From: Candidatus Hydrogenedentota bacterium
GTDB taxonomy: Bacteria > Hydrogenedentota > Hydrogenedentia > Hydrogenedentales > CAITNO01
Direction: 5' to 3'
Length of the DNA stretch: 45,294 bases
NCBI GenBank assembly: GCA_022706235.1
Contig: JAKJCY010000007.1
Coordinates: 10,459 to 55,752 of the forward strand
The notes beneath the pieces were generated by a model. It had not been told where the DNA came from. It was given only the letters and a program-made list of their open reading frames with translations, and searched no databases. The stretch's first letter is position 1, and each line of letters opens with the position of its first letter. Below, piece by piece: positions 204-27,139 of the stretch. A program made the position numbers and the translations under genes.

Positions 204-606
204 TGCCTGCCTACTTTTGTGCGCCTGGGCAAGAGGGAAGGATAATGACAGGGGACCCCTTCCCGGATACGGAGATACGATAAGATGGCATTTAGAGAAA
301 GTATTCTGCCTTCTCTCGTTCGCAAATTCTATTTGGGAATGAAATCTCTCTTGGAATTTGATTTCCCTTGTCGCGTCAGTCCGTCTGATGTATTCCGGTG
401 CTCGACCATGGTTACGAAGTGGAACTTCTCGGACAAGTGCGTTCCCAAATGAAATTTGGGAACGATAGAACAAGAGAAAAACCAGACCTGTTGTTTATAT
501 GCATCTATCCCAAAAAGTTCAAGTTGTTACAGCCCCTTCAAATGTATCAAAATAGGCGGCATGCCGCGCATTTAACATCATTACAAGTGTATACGAGAGG
601 AGTACC
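204..606. other. Intergenic region with a three-hairpin repeat
   Basis: No convincing gene lies here; the short open frames on both strands translate repeat sequence. Most of the interval is taken by the structured repeat at 313-476. An AGGAG-type ribosome binding site (about 596-602) precedes the ATG at 607. Confidence 0.6.
313..476. repeat. Three-hairpin intergenic repeat, copy 1
   Basis: Three consecutive hairpins are visible. The first is a degenerate pair around 316-341 (TCGTTCGCAAA with TTTGGGAATGA). The second is GAAGT/ACTTC at 416-429. The third is a perfect 11-bp stem, CGTTCCCAAAT with ATTTGGGAACG, at 440-464 with loop GAA. The same architecture and near-identical stems recur at 25764-25916 beside the sialidase gene. 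The element is non-coding and bounded by CTCT and AGAG-like ends. Copy 1 has a more decayed left hairpin than copy 2. Confidence 0.75.
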
Positions 607-22563: not shown

Positions 22564-22738
22564 CCGCCGGCCTCTCCAACTTCAGATTTCCTGACGTCGT
22601 CGGAAATTCACACGGCATCGGTAAACAAACATAGAGACGGAGCAAAAAAGGACTTATAACGAAGTAGCCCGTTGCCCTGTCATTCGGTATCGTATCCTGG
22701 TAAGCAGACGCCATAATCACCGAGGAGGAATGTTTATT

Positions 22739-25690
22739 ATGAAACTGTCGCTTACACTGAATCTGTTCCTTTTCCTGTCCGTACTCACTGCAGTGGAATG
22801 CGCGGTGAGCATCGCCGAACCCATCGGTACGCCCCTCTACACGCAGGGCGAGCATGGCTACCATACGTATCGCATTCCCGCGCTGGCCGTCACGAAGCAG
22901 GGGACGGTGCTCGCCTTCTGTGAGGGGCGCAAGACCTCCGGGGGTGACAGTGGCGACATCGCCATTGTGCTCCGTCGCTCCGGGGACAACGGCGATACCT
23001 GGGGTGAACAGCAGGTGGTCTGGGACGATCCCGGCAACACGAGCGGCAATCCCTGCGTGGTGGTGGACCGGGATACGGGCGTTATCTGGTTGCTGATGAC
23101 CTGGAACCTGGGCGACGACCATGAGAAGGACATCATCGCCCTGCGCAGTAAGGACACGCGCCGCGTGTTTGTCACCCGTTCAGACGATGACGGCCAGACC
23201 TGGAGCCCCGCAACGGAGATCACCTCCGAAGTGAAACAGGAGAACTGGACCTGGTACGCCACCGGTCCCGGCAGCGGGATACAACTCCAGCACGGCCCCC
23301 AAAAGGGCCGCCTGGTCATTCCCTGCGACCATATCGAGGCGGAAACGAATCACTATTACTCCCATGTTATTTATTCCGACGATCATGGCAACACCTGGCG
23401 GCTGGGCGGCAGAACGCCCGATCACCAAGTGAACGAATGCGAGGTGGTGGAACTGGCCGATGGACGGCTGATGCTGAACATGCGCAACTATGACCGGGAT
23501 AAGAAATATCGCCAGGTCGCTTTCAGTGAGGACGGGGGGATGACCTGGAAAGACCAGGCCTTTGACACGGAACTTATCGAACCCATCTGCCAGGCGTCCA
23601 TTACGCGGCACCGCTGGCCGTCCGGGGACGTCCCCGGCGCTATTGCCTTCAGCAATCCGGCCAGCAAGGACCAGCGTGTGAACATGACCGTGCGCGCCAG
23701 CTTCGATGAAGGGCGCAGCTGGAGCGCGAGCACGGTGCTGCACACCGGGCCCAGTGCCTATTCTTCGTTGGCTGTGTTGCCCGACGGTCAACTCGCCTGC
23801 CTGTACGAGGCCGGAGAAAAACATCCCTACGAGTCCATTGTGTTCGCCCGGATTCCCCTGCCGACGCCGTTCCTGCCGTCCTTGCCCGAAGGCTGTTCCT
23901 GGGATCTGGTCTGGCAGGATGAATTTGACGGGGACGCGATTGACGAAGGTAAATGGGAGATCATCGGGGACAGCCCACGCCGGGACGGGTTCTGGGTGAA
24001 TGAGGACGCCGCCCTCGACGGCAAAGGAAACCTGGTGCTGCGGACGAAAAAGGACGGCGACCGCTATACGAGTGGGGCGATCCGTACCCTGGACAGGTTT
24101 GAAAGCACCTACGGGTATTGGGAAGCCCGGTGTGAATTCCCCACCCAGCCGGGGCATTGGCCCGCGTTCTGGCTCATGCCGCCGAGAGGTATCGTTTCGC
24201 TTGAACAGGACGGGCAGGACGGCACGGAAATCGATATCATGGAGAAACCCTGGCGGGAGGATAAAATCCAGCACGCCTTGCACTGGAACGGCTACGGCGA
24301 ACACCACAAATCGGAAGGTAAGGTTTCCGAAATTCCCGGTGTCAGCCAAGGCTGGCACACCTTCGGCCTGTGGTGGACGCCGGAAGAATACGTCTTTTAC
24401 GTGGACGGCAAGGAAACCTGGCGCACGGCCGCAGGCGGCGTATGCCAAGTGCCGGTCTTTATTAAACTCACTGAAGAAATAGGGGACTGGGGCGGTGATA
24501 TCACCGAGGCGGCCCTGCCGGACACATTCCGCGTGGATTACGTCCGCGTCTATCAGGAGAAGGCAGCGCCGGTTGCGGATGGACCGGAAGCGCTACCCTT
24601 GGTGGATATTGCCGGAGACACCGGGCGACAGGTGGTGATTGCGGCGGGCACGGAAACGGTCTACCAGGGCCATCCGACCACGGTGCTGCTGCCCGACGGC
24701 AAAACGATGTTTGCCGTGTGGTGTATTGAACACGGCGGGCTTGCCGGGCCTATGGCCAAAAGCATCGACGGCGGCCTCACCTGGACGCGGATCGACGACC
24801 GGATGCCGGAAGGCTTCAAAACCCACCGGAACTGTCCCAGCATCTACCGCATGGAAGGGCCGGACGGTGTCGAACGGCTGTGGGTGTTCTCCGCCTGCAC
24901 TGGTGAAAAGGGCGGGCCACCGTACATGCCGCGTATCCTGAGCGAAGACAGCGGCGACTCTTGGCGCGAAATGGAGCCCTTGGGTGATAAATTCAATTGC
25001 GTCATGACCTTCAGTTCCGTGCTGCGCCTCAAGAACGGCGCGCACCTGGGCATGTACCATCGGCGTAGCGGTCCGGAAAATAAATTATTGGAAGTGGTGC
25101 AGACGATTTCACCGGACGGCGGCCTTACCTGGTCCGACCCTGTGGTCGTTGCCACGGTCCCGGATAAAATGCCCTGCGAACCTTTCGTTTTCCGCTCCCC
25201 CGACGGCAATGAACTCTGCTGTCTCATGCGAGAGAACACCCATAAAGGCCGCGGCCTGATGATGTTCAGCCGTGACGAGGCGCGGAGCTGGTCCACTCCC
25301 GTGAACACGCCCTGGGGCCTGAGCGGCGACCGGCACATGGGCGTATACGCACCCGATGGACGGCTCGTGATCGCTTTTCGTGACCGCGCGCCGGACAGTC
25401 CCACCTCGGGACATTTCGTCGCCTGGGTGGGCGCTTACGACGACATCCGCAACGGCAGGCCCGGCCAATCCCGCGTTAAACTGCTCCACAGCCACTCCGG
25501 AAGCGACTGCGGCTATCCTGGTGTGGAACTGCTTCCCGACGGCACCATCGTCGCCACGACTTACATCAAGTACCGCGAAGGCAAGGCAAAACATTCCGTA
25601 GTCAGCACGCGCTTTACATTGGAAGAAATTGATCGGATATTGAATGACGCTCCCGATGTGAAACACTCCGGCAGGGGTGGAAGCCATTAG
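22739..25690 (+). CDS. Three-module sialidase: GH33 - GH16 - BNR propeller
   Basis: A 983-residue secreted protein; ATG 22739 is chosen because GAGGAGGAA lies nine bases upstream. After a signal peptide (residues 1-22), residues 25-380 form a GH33 sialidase with the YRIP motif (R45), CEGRK, and Asp boxes such as [16 protein letters not shown] and SEDGGMTW. Residues 385-608 are a GH16 jelly roll with EIDIME, giving E497 and E502 as the expected nucleophile and acid/base of a laminarinase-like enzyme. Residues 625-970 are a second propeller with Asp boxes ([24 protein letters not shown]) but no YRIP. The last ten codons and the TAG lie in an intergenic repeat. It would release sialic acid from glycans bound through the GH16 site. 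I know of no standard enzyme with this order. Confidence 0.87.
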
Positions 25691-25782
25691 TCGGTGGTTG
25701 AGCGAAGCGATACCACCGGATCACGACATCACCTAATGACCCATCCTGGAGGGATGGATTGGTCTCTCGTTCCCAAGTTGTA
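25660..25782. repeat. Direct repeat copy A, overlapping the sialidase 3' end
   Basis: This 123-bp stretch runs from GAAACACTCCGGCAGG to GTTGTA. It matches 25947-26066 with a few substitutions and small gaps. It contains a hairpin, CGGTGGT (25692-25698) with ACCACCG (25712-25718). The first 31 bases encode the end of the sialidase and its TAG. Confidence 0.8.
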
Positions 25783-25916
25783 CTTGGGAACGCACGCTCT
25801 CTTGAAATTCTATTTCTTTCTGACCCTGTGTGCAATAGGCTTGCCGCAGGCGATGGTTAATGATTGCGAAGTACAACTTCGCACAGAATTGCGTTCCCAA
25901 ATAGAATTTGGGAACG
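25764..25916. repeat. Three-hairpin intergenic repeat, copy 2
   Basis: Three perfect stems: CGTTCCCAAGT/ACTTGGGAACG (25768-25792, loop TGT), GCGAAGT/ACTTCGC (25866-25882, loop ACA) and CGTTCCCAAAT/ATTTGGGAACG (25892-25916, loop AGA). It shares architecture and right-hand stem with 313-476. Perfect stems suggest it is younger or under selection. Confidence 0.8.
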
Positions 25917-25946
25917 AGCGGCAAAGGGGGGGCGTCACTCCGCTCT

Positions 25947-26066
25947 GAAACACCCCGGCAGGAGTGGAAGCCATTAGCCGGTGGTTGAGCGAAGCGATAC
26001 CACCGGATCACGACACCGCCTCATGACCCATCCGGAGGTATGGATTTGTCTCGCCCCAAAGTTGTA
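25947..26066. repeat. Direct repeat copy B
   Basis: Second copy of the repeat at 25660-25782, carrying a longer hairpin, CCGGTGGT with ACCACCGG. Together with copy A it flanks the three-hairpin element, so the whole 25660-26066 block looks like a composite of two repeat families. No gene is seen between here and 26224, apart from an 8-bp inverted repeat (26166-26173 with 26200-26207). Confidence 0.8.
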
Positions 26067-26224
26067 GAAATTGTCTCGTTTTACCCACAAGGATTACTAT
26101 AGATCCCCTGACTGAAGAATGAGTTATGAAAGCAGGGACGGGCTTAAGCGAATCTGACCCGGCGGCGTAAGGCGGTGCTGGCCCAACATTCCCAAGGCGG
26201 CCTTACGAACATGGAGTATACGGG

Positions 26225-27139
26225 ATGAACCGAAGAAAGAAATGGTACATAGCCGGTATCGGCGGTGTTCTCGGGCTTGTTCTCATTTCCGGCGTGCTCC
26301 TGGCGGCAGCCTGGTATTCGCTGTCGGGTTCGGAAGGGCAGTACTTCGATTCGGCCGGGGTACGGATTCATTACATAGATGAGGGACAGGGGGTGCCCGT
26401 GGTGCTCGTGCATGGTTTCGCGGTCCCGGCCCACCTGCAGTGGCGCAAACCGGGCCTGATAGCGGCCCTGGCGAAGGACTATCGTGTGATAGCGCCGGAC
26501 AACCGCGGCCACGGGAGAAGCGACAAGCCTCACGATCCCGGGCAGTACGGCGTGCAAATGGCGGAAGATGTGGTGCGCCTTCTGGATCACCTCCACATAG
26601 ATAAGGCCCATATCATCGGCTATTCCATGGGCGGTTTCATCACGCTCAAACTGGCAGTCCTGCATCCGGAACGTCTGTTAAGTGCGGCCGCGTGCGGCGC
26701 CGGTTGGCTCCAGCCTACGGAGGAAAACCGGGAATTCGGCGAGACGGTGGCCCGGGCCATCGAGACCCGGACAGGATTCGGGCCTCTCCTCAGGCGCCTG
26801 GGGCTGCCGGACCGGCCGATGACCTTCTGGGAGAAGGCGGTGCTCCACCTTGTCTTCAACTTTTATCACGATCCCAAAGCCCTCGCCGCCGTGTCGCGGG
26901 CCAGCAGCCAAATCACCCTTACTGAAGCGGAATTGCGGGCTAATACCGTACCCGTCCTGACTATCATTGGCGGTAAAGATGGGCTCCTCCCCGAAGCCGA
27001 GGCGCTCGCTGCGGTTATGGCTAACCATAGGCTGGTGGTTCTGGAGGGGAAGAACCATAATAATACGGATGTCTCCACGGAATTTCTTGCCGATCTGAGG
27101 CACTTTCTGGCGGCGCACACGCCGGCAAAGCCACAATAA
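26225..27139 (+). CDS. Alpha/beta hydrolase, membrane-anchored
   Basis: A 304-residue alpha/beta-hydrolase. An N-terminal basic tract and hydrophobic segment (residues 8-30) act as a signal or anchor. Then come the oxyanion-hole HGF (63-65), the nucleophile elbow GYSMGG with S134, the acid D252 in GGKDGLLPE and H278 in GKNHNNTD. The catalytic triad is complete, so it is probably an active esterase or lipase-like enzyme facing the periplasm. Carbohydrate esterase activity would suit the neighbourhood, but nothing in the sequence fixes the substrate. ATG 26225 has a modest GGAG upstream. Confidence 0.87.
   Translation: MNRRKKWYIAGIGGVLGLVLISGVLLAAAWYSLSGSEGQYFDSAGVRIHYIDEGQGVPVVLVHGFAVPAHLQWRKPGLIAALAKDYRVIAPDNRGHGRSDKPHDPGQYGVQMAEDVVRLLDHLHIDKAHIIGYSMGGFITLKLAVLHPERLLSAAACGAGWLQPTEENREFGETVARAIETRTGFGPLLRRLGLPDRPMTFWEKAVLHLVFNFYHDPKALAAVSRASSQITLTEAELRANTVPVLTIIGGKDGLLPEAEALAAVMANHRLVVLEGKNHNNTDVSTEFLADLRHFLAAHTPAKPQ

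What the first reader, a model, noticed from the sequence alone, without database searches (positions are those of the whole stretch)
313..476. Three-hairpin repeat shared with the sialidase locus
Two loci 25 kb apart carry the same order of three hairpins, CGTTCCCAA..., a GAAGT/ACTTC stem, and CGTTCCCAAAT. Stems are better conserved than loops or spacers, which suggests selection on RNA or cruciform structure.
Basis: seen in the sequence. Interest (0 to 1): 0.5.

Follow-up and report, generated by a model that had tools for sequence, protein, structure and literature searches.

The report
Transposase-linked palindromic repeat (REP pair)
The three-hairpin repeat is a copy of a small mobile-type DNA repeat, a pair of inverted palindromic (REP) units like those flanking a REP-associated transposase gene in related bacteria; the kind is known, but this family is unusual in lacking the usual GTAG tag and in recurring across several phyla.

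Summary
The repeat is real. Window 315-466 and 25766-25918 are two of 25 genome matches covering at least 100 of 176 query bases. The element is two inverted REP units, each an outer CGTTCCCAARTnnnAYTTGGGAACG hairpin plus a small inner hairpin, around a variable middle. In 31 aligned copies stems are conserved and covary locally (23 double-change cells, 4.7 shuffled); the end-to-end stem has 6. In relatives the same units flank, inverted, a REP-associated tyrosine transposase gene (RAYT, NF047646): 13 of the 13 best RAYT loci have such a hairpin within 300 bp, 10 on both sides, against 0 of 35 other Y1-transposase loci. The arrangement also occurs in Neomarinimicrobiota, Verrucomicrobiota and Gammaproteobacteria records. 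So this is a REPIN/BIME-like non-autonomous element, most likely mobilised as folded single-stranded DNA by a RAYT. That step is inferred: no movement was seen, and no such RAYT was found in this 88%-complete genome. It is a non-GTAG variant, perhaps of RAYT subclass 2.6. Extra find: a ~360-bp MITE-like element sits at the centre of these hairpins (53 of 55 ends examined).

The parts
315..466 (+). Copy 1: full REP-pair (REPIN/BIME-like) element
317..341 (+). left outer REP hairpin (degenerate: CGTTCGCAAATTCTATTTGGGAATG)
366..413 (+). variable middle, poorly conserved between copies (0.64 bits per column)
414..430 (+). right inner hairpin GAAGT/ACTTC
440..464 (+). right outer REP hairpin CGTTCCCAAATGAAATTTGGGAACG
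25766..25918 (+). Copy 2: full element downstream of the sialidase-like (BNR repeat) gene 22730-25690
25768..25792 (+). left outer REP hairpin of copy 2 (perfect, 11 bp stem)
25804..25816 (+). left inner hairpin of copy 2
25866..25882 (+). right inner hairpin of copy 2 GCGAAGTACAACTTCGC
25892..25916 (+). right outer REP hairpin of copy 2

Best explanation
Each window copy is a non-autonomous REPIN/BIME-type element: two REP units in inverted orientation, each an outer 11-bp hairpin (CGTTCCCAARTnnnAYTTGGGAACG) plus a smaller inner hairpin, around a short unconserved middle. The same units flank a REP-associated tyrosine (HUH) transposase gene in related genomes. Shown: the copies, the four-hairpin anatomy, local covariation, RAYT genes between such hairpins in inverted orientation, clustering of this REP type on the RAYT tree. 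Inferred from published TnpA_REP biochemistry: the RAYT binds the folded single-stranded REP unit, cleaves beside it and joins it elsewhere, spreading the ends without its own gene. The stems are kept because they are the transposase's substrate. Any host role (terminator, mRNA 3' end) would be secondary.
For: 25 own-genome matches cover at least 100 of 176 bases. The exact outer hairpin occurs 39 times in the own genome and in 18 of 60 relatives; the reversed-pattern control has 0 in all 60. REPtron in G009: RAYT P0001 between two inverted two-hairpin units. P0001 passes NF047646 (100.3 bits, cut-off 80) and matches TnpA_REP 4ER8 weakly (E 4e-4). Of the 13 best RAYT loci 13 have a CGTT..AAYG hairpin within 300 bp (CGTTCCC in 12, CGTTACG in one), 10 on both sides; 0 of 17 weaker relatives and 0 of 35 other Y1_Tnp loci do. 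In 15 of 18 two-sided RAYT loci the flanking hairpins read CT-hairpin upstream and hairpin-AG downstream, i.e. inverted with the window element's outer letters. The exact hairpin is in 9 of 9 genomes with a close RAYT (E<=1e-60, cut-off chosen after seeing the data) and 9 of 51 others, Fisher 3e-6; with a 1e-40 cut-off it is 9 of 13 vs 9 of 47. The extra four are G020 and G032, whose RAYTs have other CGTTCCC hairpin types on both sides, and G043 and G048, where the test found such a hairpin on one side only. The left end of the G002 RAYT element (same genus) holds CTCTTGAAATTCTATTTC, the window element's left inner sequence. HUH, catalytic Tyr, N-terminal Thr and NPVxRG are kept across A2 (motif list read in PMC2817692, section 7). 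This REP type clusters on the RAYT tree: 4 changes vs 9.0 shuffled, 0 of 500. Local covariation. No clear target-site duplication, as expected of HUH enzymes.
Against: No P0001-type RAYT was found in the window's own genome (88.2% complete, 545 contigs), and 9 of 51 genomes without a close RAYT still carry the hairpin. No clean empty site: at copy 2 G002 lacks nearly the whole intergenic stretch, not the element alone; at copy 1 nothing upstream of 521 aligned in G002; L023's flanks had no match in three same-genus genomes. 4 of 14 strong RAYT loci from other records have no such hairpin nearby. The RAYT tree is weakly resolved (6 of 23 inner branches starred), and the other REP labels cluster weakly or not at all. 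The one-sided count of doubly changed pairs (6) is also reached by the +3 slid control, though with 7 cells and 21% paired. Hairpin covariation can also arise from templated correction of imperfect palindromes. REP copies could persist without current transposition.
Confidence: 0.85

Rival explanations
1. A structured RNA: a small RNA or an mRNA 3' element whose hairpins act after transcription (terminator, stabiliser).
For: Local covariation; copy 2 lies between two genes on the + strand; known REPs have such secondary roles (passage of PMC6006769); the gene on the 3' side of the element is more often co-directional (19 of 29).
Against: No Rfam family at gathering score; the best sub-threshold match, a microRNA model at 31 of 139 bits, hits both strands; no terminator-like site and promoter matches at chance level around copy 1; no fixed orientation to neighbouring genes (5' gene same 9 / opposite 13 / none called 11; 3' gene 19 / 10 / 4; crude ORF calls that put 11 of 33 copies inside an ORF); does not explain hairpins on both sides of RAYT genes.
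Confidence: 0.07
2. A long cruciform or single large stem pairing the two ends is the selected structure.
For: It is the minimum-free-energy fold of single-stranded DNA in both copies (-30.9 and -39.7 kcal/mol, z -5.1 and -8.2); slight covariation above shuffles (score 0.054 vs 0.047, 12 of 500 as high).
Against: In 31 copies the long-stem model has 6 double-change cells (shuffled 2.7), 3 of them in the inner helix that both models share, against 23 (shuffled 4.7) for local hairpins; the outer hairpins of one element often differ in type (8 of 31 rows are A-T left and G-C right at the same position with the commonest inner types); half units occur without the other half.
Confidence: 0.05
3. 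A classical MITE of a DDE transposase that uses the ends as terminal inverted repeats.
For: Ends form 29- and 36-nt inverted repeats, 86% and 83% complementary.
Against: No clear target-site duplication in 33 elements: mean longest flank match 0.58 vs 0.34 +- 0.17 shuffled; ends are themselves hairpins and flank an HUH transposase instead.
Confidence: 0.03

Closest known systems
REPIN / BIME (inverted REP pairs; Pseudomonas, E. coli)
   Same: two REP hairpins in inverted orientation with a short spacer, many dispersed copies, linked to a RAYT
   Different: no GT[AG]G tag (0 of 113 hairpin feet); each end has two hairpins; left and right inner hairpins differ; [quoted passage not shown]
TnpA_REP subclass 2.6 (Bertels group 5), PMC6006769
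   Same: no GT[AG]G, atypical structures with copies elsewhere in the genome, WQ motif, SS downstream, about 179 aa, HuH-to-Y distance near 82 (here HuH at 59, Y at 138)
   Different: described mostly from Bacteroidetes with weaker structures; here strong 11-bp hairpins in Hydrogenedentota and others; HuH reads NH[FLIM]H and the Tyr motif YIH[ENY]NP (YMHNNP in one), close to but not identical with the printed motifs; their supplementary table was not readable here
TIRtron / TIRYT (Di Nocera 2013, PMC3733652, sections 14 and 16 read)
   Same: tyrosine transposases flanked by inverted repeats unrelated to GTAG, some self-complementary
   Different: relation to their listed repeats could not be checked (figures and supplements not held)
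IS elements that insert into REPs (ISPpu9, ISPsy8 etc., PMC1525189, abstract read)
   Same: the extra ~360-bp element here also uses REPs as target
   Different: here a MITE-sized element with 9-bp duplications in the examples compared, site fixed at the hairpin centre

Membership tests
REP / REPIN linked to RAYT (REPtron) | palindromic hairpin repeat, many dispersed copies per genome | tested here: met
   39 exact outer hairpins and 25 long matches in the genome
REP / REPIN linked to RAYT (REPtron) | two units in inverted orientation | tested here: met
   33 full elements recovered in the own and two same-genus genomes, 31 aligned
REP / REPIN linked to RAYT (REPtron) | RAYT gene flanked by the same units, inverted | tested here: met
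   10 of 13 best loci on both sides, 13 of 13 on at least one; CT..AG orientation in 15 of 18 two-sided loci; in relatives, not in the window's own genome
REP / REPIN linked to RAYT (REPtron) | transposase is a RAYT: HUH, Tyr, NP(L/V)(R/K)xG, N-terminal Thr | tested here: met
   NF047646 above cut-off for P0001; A2 invariant N59 H60 H62, Y138, N142 P143 V144 R146 G147, T17; one of ten rows has S at the (R/K) position
Canonical GTAG REP | GT[AG]G tetranucleotide at the hairpin foot | tested here: not met
   0 of 113 feet, both strands of 33 elements
TnpA_REP subclass 2.6 / group 5 | protein falls in the subclass by its own HMM or tree | not testable with these tools
   the authors' HMMs and supplements are not held; printed motifs fit approximately
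REP / REPIN linked to RAYT (REPtron) | transposase processes the single-stranded REP | not testable with these tools
   published for E. coli, Stenotrophomonas and Marinomonas enzymes (PMC8266576, introduction and first part of discussion read)

The most novel reading that the evidence does not exclude
A RAYT clade without GTAG recognition carries one REP design (CGTTCCC foot, AARTnnnAYTT top) that recurs, on both sides of related transposase genes, in at least Hydrogenedentota, Neomarinimicrobiota, Verrucomicrobiota and Gammaproteobacteria, while sister transposases carry altered tops (AAGC.., CACG.., AATC..): a natural lock-and-key series. A second mobile element has specialised on the hairpin centre, giving nested parasites.
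Probability: 0.5. Interest if true: 0.6.

Novelty: new variant of a known kind. Interest (0 to 1): 0.45.

Why it matters
How RAYTs without GTAG recognition choose their REPs is open: PMC6006769 reports that subclass 2.6 lacks the tag and is not conserved in the region that recognises it. This family gives matched transposase-repeat pairs with several hairpin-top variants, so recognition can be tested directly. It also gives an identity to a repeat found in records of many uncultivated bacteria.

Tried and rejected
Rejected: structured RNA, long cruciform, DDE-type MITE. Viral contigs: no relative of P0001. Plasmids: no match to copy 1. Own-genome Y1_Tnp loci, including the RAYT-like C506 gene (61.6 bits, under the 80 cut-off) about 2.3 kb from two copies, have no such hairpin within 300 bp. 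An atypical 131-nt copy (L147) lies next to an LGT gene, not a transposase.

Led nowhere: the empty-site tests (copy 1; copy 2; L023). A comparison of the element's middle with RAYT genes failed (files not written) and was not repeated. One search used a wrong spacing and its zero is meaningless; redone correctly. A literature search for the letters returned papers without bearing on repeats, by their titles.

Dropped rows and limits: L147 (short variant) and L267 (same flanks as L016) were left out of the 33 elements before alignment A1 (31). MITE-interrupted copies were not in A1. L283-L285 repeat L224, L226, L223 and were not counted again; L286 is the gene of L139, which was one row of the query A2. 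The 35 control loci include L034 and L038, two hits in one place. DNA searches scored only part of their candidates in some genomes (e.g. 40 of 79), and only fetched loci were examined for flanks.

Full report
Observation. Both window copies exist as described, and a fourth hairpin was missed. Copy 1 is 315-466, copy 2 25766-25918. They are 69% identical (E 5.4e-9). The ends form 29- and 36-nt inverted repeats, 86% and 83% complementary. Single-strand DNA folding is far below shuffles (z -5.1 and -8.2).

Copies. The window lies in an unnamed 5.03 Mb, 545-contig genome, 88.2% complete. A 176-bp query gives 91 matches at E<=1, 25 covering at least 100 bases; many of the 91 are opposite-strand matches of the same palindromes, and 40 of 79 candidates were scored. 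The exact outer hairpin occurs 39 times there and in 18 of 60 relatives; the reversed-pattern control gives 0.

Anatomy. Left half: CTCGTTCCCAAATTCCATTTGGGAACG-nnnn-CTCTCTTGAAATTCTATTTCC. Right half: GCGAAGTGGAACTTCGC-~9 nt-CGTTCCCAAATGGAATTTGGGAACGAG. Read inward to outward, both halves are an inner hairpin, a spacer and an outer hairpin. Some loci carry a half without the other. Sequence outside the element differs from copy to copy; flank matches are slightly but not clearly above shuffled (0.58 vs 0.34 +- 0.17, 33 elements). No GT[AG]G lies at any of 113 outer-hairpin feet.

Selection on structure. In 31 full elements of three same-genus genomes (A1), local pairs form in 97.5% of cells (shuffled 95.3), with 6 doubly changed pairs (2.3) and 23 doubly changed cells (4.7). 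The count of further pair types does not exceed shuffles (15 vs 14.2), and the +3 slid control also reaches 6 doubly changed pairs, with 7 cells and 21% paired. Related copies inflate such counts. The end-to-end stem has 6 doubly changed cells (2.7), 3 of them in the shared inner helix, and pairing near shuffled level (95.4 vs 95.1). Stems average 1.77-1.86 bits, loops 1.24, spacers 1.05 and 1.37, middle 0.64. Templated correction of palindromes could add to covariation.

The transposase. A Y1 transposase gene in G009 sits between two inverted copies of the two-hairpin unit. Its product P0001 (178 aa) passes NF047646 REP-associated tyrosine transposase (100.3 bits, cut-off 80), passes Pfam Y1_Tnp narrowly (26.4 vs 23) and matches TnpA_REP 4ER8 weakly (E 4e-4). 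32 of 60 relatives have a match at E<=0.001. Of 30 fetched loci, the best 13 all have a CGTT..AAYG hairpin within 300 bp, 10 on both sides; the other 17 have none, nor do 35 Y1_Tnp control loci. The window's own genome has no P0001 match; in G002 the gene has one in-frame stop. The G002 element's left end carries the window element's left inner sequence.

Beyond the phylum. A pattern scan (stopped at its limit) returned 107 stretches in records named Hydrogenedentota, Parabeggiatoa, Kuenenia, Neomarinimicrobiota, Verrucomicrobia, Sulfurovum and others; 17 of 107 also had the inner hairpin. Searching 30 of those genomes with ten RAYTs, 27 had a match at E<=0.001. Of 14 strong loci not counted before, 10 carry a CGTT-type hairpin in the fetched flanks, 8 of them on both sides of the gene; 4 have none, nor do 13 weaker ones. 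AART-type hairpins lie on both sides of RAYTs in records named Neomarinimicrobiota (L286, L287), Methylacidiphilales and Verrucomicrobia (L293, L310) and Parabeggiatoa (L312). Over 18 two-sided loci of both sets the outer letters are CT upstream and AG downstream in 15. On the 26-row RAYT tree the AART type needs 4 changes (shuffled 9.0, 0 of 500); the CACG type needs 3 (4.7, 8 of 500); other labels do not cluster, and only 6 of 23 inner branches are well supported.

Mechanism. From published work on other RAYTs (PMC8266576, introduction and first part of the discussion read): the enzyme recognises folded single-stranded REPs strand-specifically and cleaves at CT dinucleotides beside them. CT directly precedes the left outer hairpin in 31 of 31 rows. 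That this RAYT cuts there is inference.

Novelty. PMC6006769 (sections 12 and 13 and passages read) describes subclass 2.6 with non-GT[AG]G atypical structures, mostly in Bacteroidetes; the present RAYTs fit its printed features approximately. Its supplementary tables were not readable, so this REP may already be listed there. The listings of searches for RAYT/REPIN papers and for Hydrogenedentes with REP terms showed no title or abstract on this family; the letters cannot be searched usefully. Bertels et al. 2017 is known only through PMC6006769.

Extra. A ~360-bp element (362-364 bp in the four copies measured by their paired ends) with ends CTTGTCATTACCCACATC is inserted at the centre of these hairpins: 53 of 55 distinct ends examined, and 26 of 28 among ends first seen in loci chosen by the end itself (one search lists 87 such places in three genomes, not all fetched). 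Where both ends were compared by eye the hairpin top is duplicated over 9 bp (L004, L008; L317).

Noticed in passing
L004, L005, L008, L009, L015, L020, L149, L150, L161, L162, L317 and others in G000, G002, G003: A ~360-bp MITE-like element (ends CTTGTCATTACCCACATC) inserted at the centre of the REP outer hairpin; 53 of 55 distinct ends examined are in that site; 9-bp duplications in the examples compared. No autonomous partner was sought.
   Followed up: partly
window 25653-25746 and 25940-26033: A 94-nt direct repeat (91% identical) brackets REP copy 2, the first copy ending about 20 nt before the element; similar sequence occurs elsewhere in G002 and G003.
   Followed up: no
window 25647-26333: The intergenic stretch holding copy 2 is nearly identical in G003, but in G002 the aligned gene parts lie only 140 bp apart (686 bp here), so most of it is absent there.
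   Followed up: partly
L233, L234, L235, L290, L292: RAYTs next to a sister hairpin of the CGTTCCCACG...CGTGGGAAYG kind, apparently the same superfamily with a different top.
   Followed up: partly
L017, L150, L155, L231: A REP subtype CGTTACGAAATACAATTTCGTAACG with compensatory stem changes, next to the broken RAYT of G002 and also dispersed in the window's genome.
   Followed up: no
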